Shown here: piece after piece, positions 4,269 to 54,654 of the stretch
How positions within the stretch are numbered: position 1 is the first letter of the stretch
Layout of the letters: each line of letters opens with the position of its first letter
Source: Hydrogenophaga sp.
GTDB lineage: Bacteria; Pseudomonadota; Gammaproteobacteria; Burkholderiales; Burkholderiaceae_C
Assembly (NCBI RefSeq): GCF_019264445.1
Contig: NZ_JAHVAB010000047.1
Coordinates: 1-64,000 of the forward strand
Length of the DNA stretch: 64,000 nt
Reading direction: 5' to 3'
Translations under genes and position numbers: made by a program
The notes under the pieces: model-generated
The model's database searches: none
Seen by the model: the letters and a program-made list of their open reading frames with translations, nothing else
What the model was told of the DNA's origin: nothing

Positions 4269-5009
4269 TCAGTCGGTGCCCGGGCGCAGGGCATTGAGCG
4301 TGAACTCGATGACGTGCTTGCGGCGCTGTGCATGTGCCGCGCGGCTGCTGAGCTTCTTTGCAAAGATGACCGACAGCGTGTGGTTGTTGGAGAAGAAGAA
4401 GTACGACAGACCCGCCACCGAGATGTAGAGGTTGATGGCGTCGTAGTCGTCGCGAAACACCTTTTCGGTCACACCGCGCGCGAGCGTGGCCTCGAGCATT
4501 TCGACCAGCGGCAGGTGCATCTGCTGCAGCGACGCCGACTCGCGGATGTGCTGGCCCGCGTTGCGGTTTTCATCTGCCAGCAGGGAGATGAATTCGGGGT
4601 GCTCACTCAGGTAGTCGAACGAAAAGCCCACCAGAGCGGCCATGGCCTCCGCAGGGGCCATGTCGGCCAGGGACAAGGCGCGCTCCTTCTCGCGCAGCTG
4701 GGCATAAACAGCTTCAAGCGCGTCGCGGTAGAGGCCTTCCTTGTTGCCGAAGTAGTGGTAGACCAGCTGCTTGTTCACACCGGCCGAGGCGGCGATGAGG
4801 TCGACGCGCGCGCCGGCAAATCCGTTGCGTGCGAACTCTTCGACGGCGGCCACCAGCAACGCTTCGCGGGTGGCCGCGGCGTCGCGCAGCGGCAGGTTGG
4901 CGCGCGCCCGGGCGGCGCGGGCGGGGGCCTGTGTGGCCTTTGCAGCGGGGGCGCGCGCCGCCTTTTTGGCGGGGCTTCGGGCTGGGGTCTTTCGCGCGGC
5001 GGTGGTCAT
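4269..5009 (-). CDS. TetR/AcrR-family transcriptional regulator with basic N-terminal tail
   Basis: A 246-residue one-component regulator. The helix-turn-helix falls at about residues 45-95 (ATREALLVAAVEEFARNGFA, then ASAGVNKQLVYHYFGNKEGL), followed by a ligand-binding all-helical domain. The first 40 residues are an Ala/Lys/Arg/Pro-rich tail like histone H1 or AlgP tails, unusual for TetR proteins and possibly adding non-specific DNA contact. It is divergent from the NMT1-like binding protein and precedes sdaA. Palindromes with equal arm spacing occur upstream of itself and of the permease operon, pointing to autoregulation and transport control. Overall it looks RutR-like, but the ligand cannot be read from sequence. 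Confidence 0.88.
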   Translation of the reverse strand: MTTAARKTPARSPAKKAARAPAAKATQAPARAARARANLPLRDAAATREALLVAAVEEFARNGFAGARVDLIAASAGVNKQLVYHYFGNKEGLYRDALEAVYAQLREKERALSLADMAPAEAMAALVGFSFDYLSEHPEFISLLADENRNAGQHIRESASLQQMHLPLVEMLEATLARGVTEKVFRDDYDAINLYISVAGLSYFFFSNNHTLSVIFAKKLSSRAAHAQRRKHVIEFTLNALRPGTD

Positions 5010-5130
5010 GAGAGGTTTCCCGTCGTTGTCCTGCGGGTCACTCTACCCGACACGGTGGTGCGGCCTGGCCGCAGGCACCGTGCGTCGCGCGCGGCGCGAC
5101 GGAGTGACTTTTTCAAACGTCCAGTTGATT

Positions 5131-5148
5131 ATCAACAAAAAAGTTGAT
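5131..5148. promoter_or_regulatory. Second TCAAC-N6-GTTGA operator in the tetR / binding-protein gap
   Basis: ATCAACAAAAAAGTTGAT is a perfect inverted repeat with the same arms and six-base spacing as the site at 2850-2867. A second, overlapping dyad (GTTGATTATCAAC, 5124-5136) shares its left arm, so two TetR dimers could bind side by side. The site lies 36 bases before the binding-protein ATG and about 120 bases upstream of tetR. Confidence 0.65.
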
Positions 5149-5183
5149 ACCGTACACATCTCTTCAACCAACCCTGGGTCATC

Positions 5184-6173
5184 ATGAAAAAACTCATCGC
5201 CGCAGCGAGCACCGCCCTCTTGTCCCTGGCAGCAGCGTCCGCCTCTGCGGCCGACGTGACGCTCATGCTGAACTGGACGCCCACGGCCGATCACGCACCG
5301 CTGTACTACGCCAAGTCGCAAGGTTGGTTCAAGAAAGAAGGGATCGACCTTTCCATCGAGTCGGGTCGGGGTTCGGCCGCCACTGCCCAGCGCGTGGGCT
5401 CGGGTGGTTCGCAGATGGGCATTGCCGATTTGCCCACGGCCATGCAGGCGCGCGGCAAGGGCGCCGACCTCACCGCCGTGATGGTGATCTACGCCAACAC
5501 GCCGCAAGGCTTCTACTGGCTCAAGTCGTCCGGCATCAATGGCCCGAAGGATTTCGTAGGCCGCAAGATCGGCAACCCGCCCGGCGATGCCGCGCGCCTG
5601 ATGTGGCCGGCCTTTGCCAAGAACGCCGGGATCGACGCCGGATCTGTGAACTTCGTGAACCTCAGCCCGCAAGCCAAGGTGGCCGCACTGAAGGCCAAGT
5701 CGGTGGACATCATCTCGGACTTCTACAACGAGCACGACCTCAAGGTGCGCGAGTTTGGCAACGACCTGGGCTTTGCGCCGTGGCGTTCGGTGGGCCTGAA
5801 CGTGTACGGCAATTCGATCGTGGTGAACCGCGCGTTCCTCGACAAGAACAAGGACCTCGTGGCCAAGTTCGTGGCGGTCACGCAGCGCGCCTACGACGCC
5901 TGCGTGAAGTCCTTCGACCCTTGCCTGCAAGCCCTGATGGCGGACGTCAGCGGCCTGAGCGCCGACAACCAGCGCGACCAGTGGGGGCGCATCAAGATGC
6001 TGATGCGCGACGACACCACGACCAAGGTGGCGCTCGGCGCATTTGACGCTGGCCGCGTGAAGGCCGACTACGAACTGGTGGGCTCGCTCATCGGCATCGA
6101 CAAGGCGTTCGACCCCGCCACCATGTTCACCAACGATTTCCTGGACTCTAAGGTGCGCATGACGGGGCAGTGA
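5184..6173 (+). CDS. ABC transporter substrate-binding protein, NMT1/THI5-like
   Basis: Periplasmic receptor of 329 residues with a cleavable signal peptide (MKKLIAAASTALLSLAAASASA). The start of the mature protein, DVTLMLNWTPTADHAPLYYAKSQG, is typical of NMT1/THI5 family receptors for pyrimidine-like or other heterocyclic compounds. It is transcribed away from tetR with a shared operator between them. The likely permease is at 1951-2769, on the other side of tetR-sdaA. The ligand class is inferred from the family only; aromatic acids or sulfonates are alternatives. Confidence 0.88.
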   Translation: MKKLIAAASTALLSLAAASASAADVTLMLNWTPTADHAPLYYAKSQGWFKKEGIDLSIESGRGSAATAQRVGSGGSQMGIADLPTAMQARGKGADLTAVMVIYANTPQGFYWLKSSGINGPKDFVGRKIGNPPGDAARLMWPAFAKNAGIDAGSVNFVNLSPQAKVAALKAKSVDIISDFYNEHDLKVREFGNDLGFAPWRSVGLNVYGNSIVVNRAFLDKNKDLVAKFVAVTQRAYDACVKSFDPCLQALMADVSGLSADNQRDQWGRIKMLMRDDTTTKVALGAFDAGRVKADYELVGSLIGIDKAFDPATMFTNDFLDSKVRMTGQ

Positions 6174-6202
6174 TGGCATGCAGCGGGCCACCTAGCCCGC
6201 GA

Positions 6203-7681
6203 TCAGGCTCTCAAGCCTGAGGCTTCAGCCGCAAAACGCCCCGCGCGGCGGCCCGACACGAATGCCCAGGCCAGGTGGTGGCCGTGGCCCTTGAGCAGCA
6301 AACCGCCCTGGCCGGTGGAGCCGGCAGCATAGAGGCCTGGCAACACCTGGTCGTTGGCACCCAGCACGCGGTGCTGGGTGTCCACCATCAGGCCGCCCTC
6401 GCTGTGCACGAACACCGATCGCACGGGGCCCATGGCCACAAAGGGCCCCGCGCCCAGGGCGCGCACGCCACCTTGCGCGGCGCTGTGCACCAAGGCTGTA
6501 GCGTCCATGCCCAGACGTTGCGCCAGCGCCTCCAGCGTGGGCGCTTCAGTGAAGACGTCGGGCCGGTTGCGGCGGTAGTCGGGCACATAGGCATACGCGA
6601 CACCCGGCGCGGTGGACACGAAGTCCGGCCATTGCGAAAAGCGCTGCGCGAGGGCAGCGTCGATCACGATGTAACCCACCTTGCCGGGCTGGTCGGGCAG
6701 GCGCCATGCCGGGCGGTCGCGTTCGTCGCCAAAGCGCTCGCCGCGCCGATTCACCAGCACCGCGCCCGCATCAAACAGCGTGGTGGAGGGCGCCAGCGCC
6801 GTGGTGAGGAATTTCATCATCAGCGGACGCAGGATGAAGGGCGGCACGTGGTCGATCGCCCACTCCATGGTGACGGCGAGCCAGCGCCACGGCGGCAGGC
6901 GGCGCATGAAGTTTTCGGTGGCTGGCGCAATGAAACGGATCTCGGGCCCGAGGGCCAGGTCACCGTTGACGATGCGTGCGCCCAGCGCTTCGCCCATGCG
7001 CTGGCCGTCACCGGTGGCGCTGACGTTCACGCCTTCCACCTTCGCCTCCTGTTCGCCCATGAAGCGCGCCTTGAATTCCGGGCCATTGGTGAAGTCACCG
7101 GCGGCCAGCACCACCCCGCCGCGGGCCAGATAGCGCGCAGGCTCGCCAGCACCCTCGCGGCTGGCGCGCACGCCCACCACGCGATCGCCCTCTTGCAGCA
7201 GCGCGTTCACGCGCAGCCCGGTGCGAATGTCCACCCCGGCGCGCCTCGCGCGCCGCAGCAGGTGGTAGATGAAGGACCGTGAGTTGGGGAGCACGTTGTG
7301 CATGCGCGGTTGGCGGTGCGGCGGTTCGGGCATGGGGCCCATGAAGCGCACGCCCGAATCGAGCAGCCACTGAAAGGTGCCGGGGATCTCGTCGCACAAC
7401 ACGCGGCGTAGGCCATGGTTGTCGCGATCGGCGAGCTCGCCGGCAAAGCCGGGCATGTCGGCCCAGTGGTCGGCCGGCGTGTCCTGGATGCCGCGCCTGC
7501 GCTGGTGCGGGGTGCCACTGGAACTCACCGAGCCGATCGACCAGGACGTGGAGCCTCCGGGCTGGGGGTTCTTCTCCAGCAGCACCACGCGCCGCCCGCT
7601 TTCGGCCGCCTCGATGGCCGCCGCCAGGCCCGCGCCACCGCCACCCACCACCACCACGTCGAAAGTTTCTTCCTGCAGCAT
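6203..7681 (-). CDS. FAD-dependent dehydrogenase, fumarate reductase/KstD-like flavoprotein
   Basis: A 492-residue FAD_binding_2 family flavoprotein. The dinucleotide-binding GGGGAGLAAA motif is at the N-terminus, a GGST loop follows at about residue 40, and the C-terminus carries the family's GLYAAGSTGQGG FAD contact. Such proteins reduce or dehydrogenate carbon-carbon bonds of dicarboxylates or ketones. No signal peptide is seen, so it is probably cytosolic. GTG (7693), ATG (7687) and ATG (7681) are all in frame; the last is preferred because GAGG lies six bases before it. It is the last gene of the large minus-strand cluster, 62 bases after a Bug receptor. The gap to the convergent binding-protein gene has a GCGGGC/GCCCGC hairpin without a T-run. 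Confidence 0.82.
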   Translation of the reverse strand: MLQEETFDVVVVGGGGAGLAAAIEAAESGRRVVLLEKNPQPGGSTSWSIGSVSSSGTPHQRRRGIQDTPADHWADMPGFAGELADRDNHGLRRVLCDEIPGTFQWLLDSGVRFMGPMPEPPHRQPRMHNVLPNSRSFIYHLLRRARRAGVDIRTGLRVNALLQEGDRVVGVRASREGAGEPARYLARGGVVLAAGDFTNGPEFKARFMGEQEAKVEGVNVSATGDGQRMGEALGARIVNGDLALGPEIRFIAPATENFMRRLPPWRWLAVTMEWAIDHVPPFILRPLMMKFLTTALAPSTTLFDAGAVLVNRRGERFGDERDRPAWRLPDQPGKVGYIVIDAALAQRFSQWPDFVSTAPGVAYAYVPDYRRNRPDVFTEAPTLEALAQRLGMDATALVHSAAQGGVRALGAGPFVAMGPVRSVFVHSEGGLMVDTQHRVLGANDQVLPGLYAAGSTGQGGLLLKGHGHHLAWAFVSGRRAGRFAAEASGLRA

Positions 7682-52547: not shown

Positions 52548-53171
52548 ATGCCACGACCCACCCAGCTTCCTGTTTCCCGGCCCACGCGGATCGCGTGGAA
52601 GTGCGCCTGCGCGTGGGCGCTGGCCGCTGTGCCGTGGGCGTGCGCGCAGGCGGACTGGGCCTACCTGCTGCCCTCACCCGGTACCACCAGCCTGATCGAA
52701 CTCCGCCAGGGATCGGAGCTGTCCCGTCAGGTGAGGAGCCTGCACGGCCAGGGCTATGAGTCGTCGGGCGGCGAGCGCGTGGAGTTCGCCGCTTGGTACA
52801 GCTCGAACTGGACCGACATGCGCGCCACCTGGATGACGCCGCTCTCGGCCAATACCGGCTTCATCTGGGGTTTTGGCACGGGCGAGCGCGGCGCCAAGTA
52901 CCGCATTGACCCCAGCCTCAAGCTCGGCTTCATCCACCGCGCAGCCCTGGCCCCCCACACCGTGCTCACCGTGCGCGCCACCACCACGCTGGGAGGCCGC
53001 CTGCGCGAGAAGAGTTGCACCGCCGACTACGGCGACATCGGCGGTGTGCAGACCGTGAACTGCCGACTGGCCGCGTCCACCCTGGAGCCGGCCGAGACGC
53101 TGCGTTACCTGTTCAACGAAACACCGCGCGACCGGCACCAGATCTCGGTGTCGATCTCCCGCGCGTTCTAG
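52548..53171 (+). CDS. Small outer-membrane-like exported protein next to a subtilase
   Basis: A 207-residue protein with a signal peptide (CACAWALAAVPWACAQA). The rest reads as amphipathic strands (RVEFAAWYSS, TWMTPLSANTGFIWGFGTG, SLKLGFIHRAAL, TVLTVRATTTLGG) and ends in ISVSISRAF, a C-terminal aromatic like outer-membrane beta signals. A single cysteine pair (CTADYG, NCRLAA) may form a disulfide. The family is not recognised. The subtilase gene begins 24 bases after its stop, so the two form one operon and may act together at the cell surface. Confidence 0.65.
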   Translation: MPRPTQLPVSRPTRIAWKCACAWALAAVPWACAQADWAYLLPSPGTTSLIELRQGSELSRQVRSLHGQGYESSGGERVEFAAWYSSNWTDMRATWMTPLSANTGFIWGFGTGERGAKYRIDPSLKLGFIHRAALAPHTVLTVRATTTLGGRLREKSCTADYGDIGGVQTVNCRLAASTLEPAETLRYLFNETPRDRHQISVSISRAF

Positions 53172-53194
53172 CTCCCCCACCACCGAGAGAAACC

Positions 53195-54133
53195 ATGAAA
53201 ACAACCCCCTCAATCGCCTTCACGCTGTGCGGCGCCTTGTCTGGCGTTTGGTGTGCCGTGCCCGCGTTCGCCCAGCAAGGCGAAGCACAACTGGAGGCCT
53301 CGCTGAGCGCCGCCGCCGCCACCCCCGCCTGGATGAGCACCGAAGTCGGCGACGCCTGGGCGAAGGGCTACAAAGGCAAGGGCGTCACCATCACCGTGGT
53401 CGACGATTTCAGAAGCAACTCCATGCTCAACGGCAAGCTCGGCACGAGCAGCCAGTCGCAGCGCCACGGCCAGTGGACCACCCTGGAAGCCAGCATGATC
53501 GCGCCGCTGGCCACCGTGGCCACGCAAGACTTCGGCAGCGGCACCGCAGTGAAGCTCAACAAGGGCCTCAACGTGCTGAACCTGAGCTACGGAATGATGG
53601 CCACCGCCGGCTACACCGCCAGCCAGATCCGCTGGAGCGCGCAAGAGAACTCCATCATCAGCTACGCGCAAAACGGCACCGCCGTGGTGTCCAAGGCCGC
53701 CGGCAACGACGGCATTGCGGTGCTGGGCAAGAACGCACGCGGCCAGACCGACTACCTCAACCTCGCGCTCAAGGGCACCAAGACCGCCATCTACGTGGGC
53801 GCCCTCAACAGCAACGGCACCACGGCGGCACCCGCCACGCTGGCCTCGTACTCGAACACCGCTGGCACCGATGCCGCGATCCAGAAGCAGTTCCTGGTGG
53901 TCGGTGTGGAGGGCAGCAAGACCGGTCTGTACGGCACGTCGTTTGCCGCCCCCGTGATCACGGGCTACGCCGCCGTGCTGGGCAGCAAGTTCACCAGCGC
54001 CACGCCGGTGCAGATCACCAACCAGCTGCTCAATACCGCGCGCCAGGACACGATCAAGGGCTACCAGGCGCAGCTGCATGGCCGCGGTGAAGCCAGCCTC
54101 ACGCGGGCCCTCGCGCCCGTGGCGATCAAGTAA
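53195..54133 (+). CDS. Secreted subtilisin-like S8 family peptidase
   Basis: A 312-residue exported protein with signal peptide (MKTTPSIAFTLCGALSGVWCAVPAFA). The catalytic triad fits the S8 pattern: Asp in ITVVDDF, His in QRHGQWT, and Ser in YGTSFAAPVITGYAAVLG; the oxyanion Asn is in KAAGNDG. There is no clear I9 prodomain between signal and protease. It is shorter than most subtilases and has a reduced loop set. It follows the outer-membrane-like gene by 24 bases and stands in an island between polyamine genes. Substrate unknown. Confidence 0.82.
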   Translation: MKTTPSIAFTLCGALSGVWCAVPAFAQQGEAQLEASLSAAAATPAWMSTEVGDAWAKGYKGKGVTITVVDDFRSNSMLNGKLGTSSQSQRHGQWTTLEASMIAPLATVATQDFGSGTAVKLNKGLNVLNLSYGMMATAGYTASQIRWSAQENSIISYAQNGTAVVSKAAGNDGIAVLGKNARGQTDYLNLALKGTKTAIYVGALNSNGTTAAPATLASYSNTAGTDAAIQKQFLVVGVEGSKTGLYGTSFAAPVITGYAAVLGSKFTSATPVQITNQLLNTARQDTIKGYQAQLHGRGEASLTRALAPVAIK

Positions 54134-54249: not shown

Positions 54250-54654
54250 ATGTACATCAAGACCTTCACCGCTGTGGCGCTGTGCGCCGCCTCTGCATTC
54301 GCTTCTGCCCAGACCATGACCAAGGCCGAATACGACGCGGGCAAGCAGCGCATTGAGATGAACTACAAGATTGCGAAGAAGGCCTGCGACACCGTCAAGG
54401 ACAACGCCAAGGACGTGTGCGAACAGGAGGCCAAGGGCAAGGAAAAGGTCGAGAAGGCCGAGCTGGAGCACCAATACCAGAACACCCCGGCCAACGCGCT
54501 CAAGCTGGAAGAGGTGAAGGCGGACACCGCCTATGACATCGCCAAGGAAAAGTGCGAAGACCAGGCCGGTGACGCCGAGAAGGTGTGCAAGGCCGACGCC
54601 AAGGCCGTGCATGAGCGCGCGGTCAATGCCGCCAAGGCCAAGGCCAAGGGCTGA
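54250..54654 (+). CDS. Small exported helical protein with repeated AK-C-AK modules
   Basis: A 134-residue protein with a signal peptide (MYIKTFTAVALCAASAFASA). The body is lysine/alanine/glutamate-rich and likely helical, with two related segments each holding two cysteines (IAKKACDTVKDNAKDVCEQEAK and IAKEKCEDQAGDAEKVCKADAK), one about 65 residues after the other. Similar proteins are common in Burkholderiales and have no known role. It has its own terminator at 54687. GGAGATCGCAAC precedes the ATG. Confidence 0.75.
   Translation: MYIKTFTAVALCAASAFASAQTMTKAEYDAGKQRIEMNYKIAKKACDTVKDNAKDVCEQEAKGKEKVEKAELEHQYQNTPANALKLEEVKADTAYDIAKEKCEDQAGDAEKVCKADAKAVHERAVNAAKAKAKG

What the first reader, a model, noticed from the sequence alone, without database searches (positions are those of the whole stretch)
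52548..54133. Outer-membrane-like protein paired with a compact subtilase
A 207-residue exported strand-rich protein ending in a phenylalanine is followed 24 bases later by a secreted S8 protease without a visible prodomain. The barrel-like partner could act as chaperone, anchor or export pore, a split version of a subtilase autotransporter. I do not recognise the partner family.
Basis: inference. Interest (0 to 1): 0.6.

Follow-up and report, generated by a model that had tools for sequence, protein, structure and literature searches.

The report
Outer-membrane partner of a pro-domain-less protease
Two neighbouring genes, one for a small protein that looks built for the bacterial outer membrane and one for a secreted subtilisin-type protease lacking the usual folding helper, are inherited together in diverse bacteria, which suggests that the first folds, restrains or anchors the second.

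Summary
A 207-aa exported protein (52548-53171) precedes a 312-aa secreted subtilase (53195-54133) with an intact Asp/His/Ser triad and no prodomain. The partner matches no Pfam, NCBIfam or PDB sequence family. Both families are rare, and they are paired: every intact partner found has the subtilase next to it (24 chromosomal loci, mostly Burkholderiales; a divergent pair; rhizobial plasmids). The pair survives reversed order and convergent arrangement; no other neighbour is conserved. The partner carries the C-terminal signature of an outer-membrane protein (26 of 28 such ORFs among 795 examined). AlphaFold predicts six long strands with outer-membrane topology and two long loops; the most conserved loop holds an invariant Cys pair. 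A read-through model of the pair has pTM 0.74, near the ceiling set by its disordered residues, so a specific complex is predicted. The 'split autotransporter' idea is only partly supported: the nearest other subtilases are autotransporters, but no homology to their barrels was detected. Best reading: a dedicated outer-membrane foldase/anchor acting in trans, functionally like Aeromonas ORF2-ASP but unrelated in sequence. Localisation and function are inferred, not shown.

The parts
52548..53171 (+). Partner gene: 207-aa exported outer-membrane-like protein of an undescribed family
   Evidence: family of 24 aligned members; no Pfam/NCBIfam/PDB family
53010..53135 (+). Long loop L3 of the partner (residues 155-196), predicted extracellular, most conserved part, with invariant C157 (53016-53018) and C172 (53061-53063)
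   Evidence: mean column entropy 1.04 bits versus 1.51 for strands; alignment; model
53142..53168 (+). C-terminal beta-signal of the partner (residues 199-207, ending in Phe)
   Evidence: pattern found in 26 partners and 2 autotransporters among 795 ORFs
53195..54133 (+). Subtilase gene: 312-aa secreted S8 peptidase without prodomain
   Evidence: PF00082; alignment
53402..53404 (+). Catalytic Asp70 codon
   Evidence: invariant
53465..53467 (+). Catalytic His91 codon
   Evidence: invariant
53705..53707 (+). Oxyanion-hole Asn171 codon
   Evidence: invariant
53939..53941 (+). Catalytic Ser249 codon
   Evidence: invariant
54080..54130 (+). Conserved C-terminal tail GRGEASLTRALAPVAIK of the subtilase, at the place where S8 autotransporters continue into linker and barrel

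Best explanation
The two genes encode a dedicated pair. The partner is exported, assembled into the outer membrane by the BAM machinery, and uses its two long conserved loops (L1 and the Cys-paired L3) to bind its own subtilase. Because the subtilase has no prodomain, the partner most likely supplies in trans what a prodomain supplies in cis (folding help and/or temporary inhibition) and keeps the enzyme at the outer membrane. Shown here by computation: conserved pairing, absent prodomain, outer-membrane-type C-terminus, predicted specific complex. Inferred: membrane insertion, orientation, that binding is through L1/L3, the foldase/anchor function, and where the active enzyme ends up.
For: Obligate pairing across Burkholderiales families and Alphaproteobacteria, retained when the order is reversed (L026/L070) or the genes are convergent (L047, L048); no other neighbour conserved. 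Correlated distances in the two trees, r=0.64, 0 of 2000 permutations. No prodomain in any member. Beta-signal. Six-strand model, pLDDT 87.8, with short turns on one side and long loops on the other; structure hits mostly outer-membrane proteins. L3 is more conserved than the strands, as expected if it binds a fixed partner. Read-through model of the pair: pTM 0.74 with about 430 of 532 residues ordered, the same ratio to its ceiling as the partner alone (0.73 with about 165 of 207), which an uncertain domain placement (my estimate about 0.53) would not give.
Against: No structure match is significant (best E 0.07, TM below 0.3), and a six-stranded single-chain barrel is not known (PMC6340704). 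The two strand faces do not differ in conservation, so membrane insertion rests on the C-terminal signal and the predicted topology. No negative control could be run for the pair model, which used a covalent read-through chain, and the interface itself could not be inspected. No promoter or terminator stood out, so co-transcription is inferred from spacing only.
Confidence: 0.5

Rival explanations
1. The partner is a soluble periplasmic foldase or inhibitor whose C-terminal Phe strand is coincidental; it protects the cell from, or folds, the subtilase before secretion by another route, like Lif or Aeromonas ORF2.
For: Pairing, missing prodomain and predicted complex fit equally well. Six strands suit a small soluble barrel. 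ORF2-ASP shows that such a system exists (PMC5638518).
Against: The outer-membrane C-terminal pattern is kept in nearly all members although the rest of the strand varies, and is otherwise seen only in autotransporters in this set. Structure hits are mostly outer-membrane proteins.
Confidence: 0.25
2. A true split autotransporter: partner subunits assemble into an oligomeric barrel (for example 6 + 6 = 12 strands) that carries the subtilase across the outer membrane in trans.
For: Nearest subtilases outside the family are S8 autotransporters with C-terminal barrels; the subtilase ends where the autotransporter passenger would continue into its linker; six-strand protomer; outer-membrane signal.
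Against: No profile similarity to S8 autotransporter barrels. No evidence of oligomerisation. Conserved bulky loops would sit over the pore.
Confidence: 0.12
3. The partner is mainly a surface anchor or substrate adaptor: the subtilase folds and is secreted alone, then docks on the partner's loops at the cell surface.
For: Predicted complex and conserved, presumably extracellular loop.
Against: Does not explain why every member lacks a prodomain.
Confidence: 0.1

Closest known systems
Aeromonas sobria serine protease ASP and its external chaperone ORF2
   Same: Prodomain-less secreted subtilase whose neighbouring gene encodes a dedicated partner; asp-orf2-like operons recur in several genera (PMC5638518, PMC9549277).
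   Different: ORF2 lies downstream of asp and its C-terminal tail occupies the active site; here the partner is usually upstream, carries an outer-membrane-type C-terminus, and its profile matches no PDB chain. ASP is a kexin-like S8B enzyme with extra domains; this subtilase is a compact S8 catalytic domain.
S8 (subtilase) autotransporters, e.g. Serratia Ssp, NalP, SphB1
   Same: Secreted subtilase associated with an outer-membrane beta protein; nearest subtilase relatives outside the family; Ssp is among the PDB matches (8e7f).
   Different: Two separate polypeptides with separate signal peptides; the partner has six predicted strands and no detectable similarity to the autotransporter barrel; no linker or autochaperone region.
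Lipase-specific foldases (Lif)
   Same: Dedicated membrane-held steric chaperone encoded beside its secreted enzyme (PMC7046727 abstract).
   Different: Inner-membrane-anchored helical protein acting on a lipase (own knowledge); no sequence comparison was made.

Membership tests
Peptidase family S8 (subtilases) | Asp/His/Ser triad in subtilisin fold | tested here: met
   PF00082 in 25 of 25 members; triad invariant; fold matches subtilisins
Peptidase family S8 (subtilases) | N-terminal I9-type prodomain (usual, not universal) | tested here: not met
   no prodomain match and no room for one
S8 autotransporter (type Va) | Passenger and 12-stranded barrel in one polypeptide | tested here: not met
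   two ORFs with separate N-termini in every locus
S8 autotransporter (type Va) | Barrel homologous to the autotransporter beta-domain | tested here: not met
   no Pfam match; hhalign probability 0.2% against S8 autotransporter C-termini
ASP-ORF2 external chaperone system | Prodomain-less subtilase with adjacent dedicated partner gene | tested here: met
ASP-ORF2 external chaperone system | Partner homologous to ORF2 | tested here: inconclusive
   partner profile matches no PDB chain below E 0.2, but ORF2 was not compared directly
ASP-ORF2 external chaperone system | Partner needed for folding and inhibits the enzyme | not testable with these tools
   needs experiment
Outer-membrane beta-barrel proteins | Signal peptide and C-terminal beta-signal ending in Phe | tested here: met
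   signal peptide judged by eye
Outer-membrane beta-barrel proteins | Closed barrel of at least eight strands | tested here: inconclusive
   six long strands predicted; closure or oligomer not visible

The most novel reading that the evidence does not exclude
The partner is an oligomeric outer-membrane translocon built from six-stranded subunits that exports a separately encoded subtilase: a two-gene autotransporter, a new type V-like arrangement.
Probability: 0.12. Interest if true: 0.85.

Novelty: new variant of a known kind. Interest (0 to 1): 0.58.

Why it matters
If right, this is a second, independently evolved solution to folding a subtilase without its own prodomain, this time by a protein destined for the outer membrane. 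The partner family is undescribed in the libraries searched, is only called 'hypothetical protein' in public records, and its predicted fold has no significant match in the PDB. It offers a small, testable model of how an outer-membrane protein can chaperone and hold a secreted enzyme, and bears on how autotransporters might arise from, or break into, separate genes.

Tried and rejected
Pfam, NCBIfam and PHROGs hits for the partner were absent or sub-threshold noise, e.g. DHFR_2/DfrB. Homology of the partner to S8 autotransporter barrels: not detected. Conserved third gene (substrate or secretion component): none; only the pair is shared by all. Conservation contrast between the two strand faces as a test of membrane insertion: no difference. 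Viral structure library: nothing significant. Promoter/terminator scan uninformative. The weak partner hit in G107 has in-frame stops and was not counted.

Full report
Observation. The window encodes, on the + strand, a 207-residue protein (52548-53171) and, 24 bases on, a 312-residue subtilase (53195-54133). Both have signal-peptide-like N-termini (by eye). The subtilase matches PF00082; the partner matches nothing in Pfam, NCBIfam or the PDB by sequence. Each is single-copy in its genome.

Pairing. A scan of one genome per species with the partner gave 21 loci; six-frame searches of these and of genomes fetched earlier showed the subtilase beside the partner in every one. Most lie in Burkholderiales (Hydrogenophaga, Limnohabitans, Macromonas, Malikia, Alcaligenaceae MAGs; some MAGs bear other labels); two are Aestuariivita. 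In a sample of 201 genomes of the family, the five with a strong subtilase match are the five with a strong partner match. In a sample of 399 genomes of the order, the partner is in G000, G115, G217, G302 and G466, the subtilase in G000, G115, G217 and G302; in G466 the partner is frame-broken next to what looks like an insertion-element remnant and no subtilase was found. If independent, four of four falling within five of 399 has a probability of about 5e-9. An independent collection agrees: seven rhizobial plasmids hold the partner and the same seven hold the full-length subtilase, adjacent in each of the four regions opened. A class-level search found no further close subtilase without a partner.

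The linkage is not mere operon inertia. In L026/L070 the order is reversed, with the genes overlapping slightly; in L047 and L048 the genes are convergent; in L033 one partner precedes two tandem subtilases. All-against-all comparison of flanking ORFs shows that only these two genes are common to all 23 loci compared; the next large clusters are other reading frames of the pair, and further genes are shared only within lineages. The distance matrices of the two families correlate (r=0.64, 0 of 2000 permutations), as shared ancestry and co-inheritance both predict.

The subtilase. D70, H91, N171 and S249 are invariant in 25 sequences. No member has a prodomain match, and in members such as L030 only a few residues separate the probable signal-peptidase site from the catalytic domain. 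The conserved end 'GRGEASLTRALAPVAI' corresponds to the end of the catalytic domain; outside the family the best matches are mostly 700-900-residue S8 autotransporters, which continue at this point into linker and barrel.

The partner. Alignment of 24 members shows invariant C157 and C172, a GTGE...KY motif, VNCRLAA, and a terminal Phe (followed by one residue in one member). The last nine residues follow the BAM beta-signal (hydrophobic at -5, -7, -9; Phe at -1): of 795 distinct ORFs of at least 150 codons in the fetched loci and the window, 28 have this pattern, 26 of them partners and the other two S8 autotransporters. AlphaFold2 (24 sequences) gives pLDDT 87.8, pTM 0.73 and six long strands (48-54, 91-98, 103-115, 118-135, 138-154, 197-205, joining short neighbouring elements), with short turns at 99-102 and 136-137 and long loops 55-90 and 155-196. 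By the rule that the last strand of an outer-membrane protein ends in the periplasm, both long loops would be outside (inference). Loop 155-196 is more conserved (1.04 bits) than the strands (1.51 bits), unlike ordinary outer-membrane proteins whose outer loops vary fastest (own knowledge). Foldseek against the PDB gives mostly outer-membrane proteins (OccK8, OmpA, FapF, FadL) but no significant match and TM below 0.3. Eight strands is the smallest known single-chain outer-membrane barrel (PMC6340704), so the partner is a new small barrel, an open sheet completed by oligomerisation, or not a membrane barrel at all.

Predicted complex. In several loci the two genes are in the same frame, so a read-through translation (stops read as Gly) gives a natural linker. 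With 12 such paired rows plus unpaired members, AlphaFold2 of the L003 pair gives pLDDT 85.0 and pTM 0.74, with the linker disordered. About 430 of 532 residues are ordered; pTM divided by that fraction is 0.92, the same as for the partner alone (0.73 over about 165/207). My estimate for two confident domains in unknown relation is about 0.53. This indicates a confident relative placement. Limits: no non-cognate control, no interface coordinates, covalent chain.

Mechanism. Most likely the partner is an outer-membrane-resident cognate foldase/anchor that does in trans what a prodomain does in cis. The nearest characterised logic is the Aeromonas sobria protease ASP, which lacks a prodomain and needs ORF2, a chaperone encoded just downstream whose C-terminal tail sits at the active site (PMC5638518; PMC9549277). 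The partner here is not detectably related to any PDB chain and looks like a different kind of protein. A second analogy is the S8 autotransporter, where C-terminal sequences aid folding of the enzyme (Ssp; PMC9977779 and its reference 32). Membership of the autotransporter family fails on two tested features; 'works like a split autotransporter' remains possible but is not the leading reading.

Novelty. The literature searched holds no description of this pair that I found; public records call the partner 'hypothetical protein'. I rate it a new variant of a known kind (external partner of a prodomain-less subtilase).

Noticed in passing
L071 (NC_002679.1, Mesorhizobium japonicum pMLa) 4884-6480: The pair also sits on rhizobial, mostly conjugative plasmids; the pMLa copy of the subtilase has in-frame stops while its partner is intact.
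   Followed up: partly
L074 2501-2647: Mesorhizobium sp. 131-3-5 keeps only a C-terminal scrap of the subtilase, near nif-associated fdxB and an ACC deaminase gene; no partner was found on that plasmid.
   Followed up: partly
L025 399-1161: G466 has a frame-broken partner and no subtilase; the downstream sequence resembles a transposase fragment, suggesting loss of the pair by an insertion.
   Followed up: partly
L033 6490-8506: Two tandem divergent copies of the subtilase follow a single partner gene.
   Followed up: no
L070 433-2702: Divergent pair in reversed order in a 1.8 Mb genome; the subtilase is about 553 aa with an N-terminal pair of repeats (YIASYPDLIRAFG / YLAKYPDLQRAFG).
   Followed up: partly
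window 54250-54654: A small secreted, charged protein of 134 aa with four Cys in its mature part follows the subtilase; it matches no family and is not conserved beside other pairs.
   Followed up: partly
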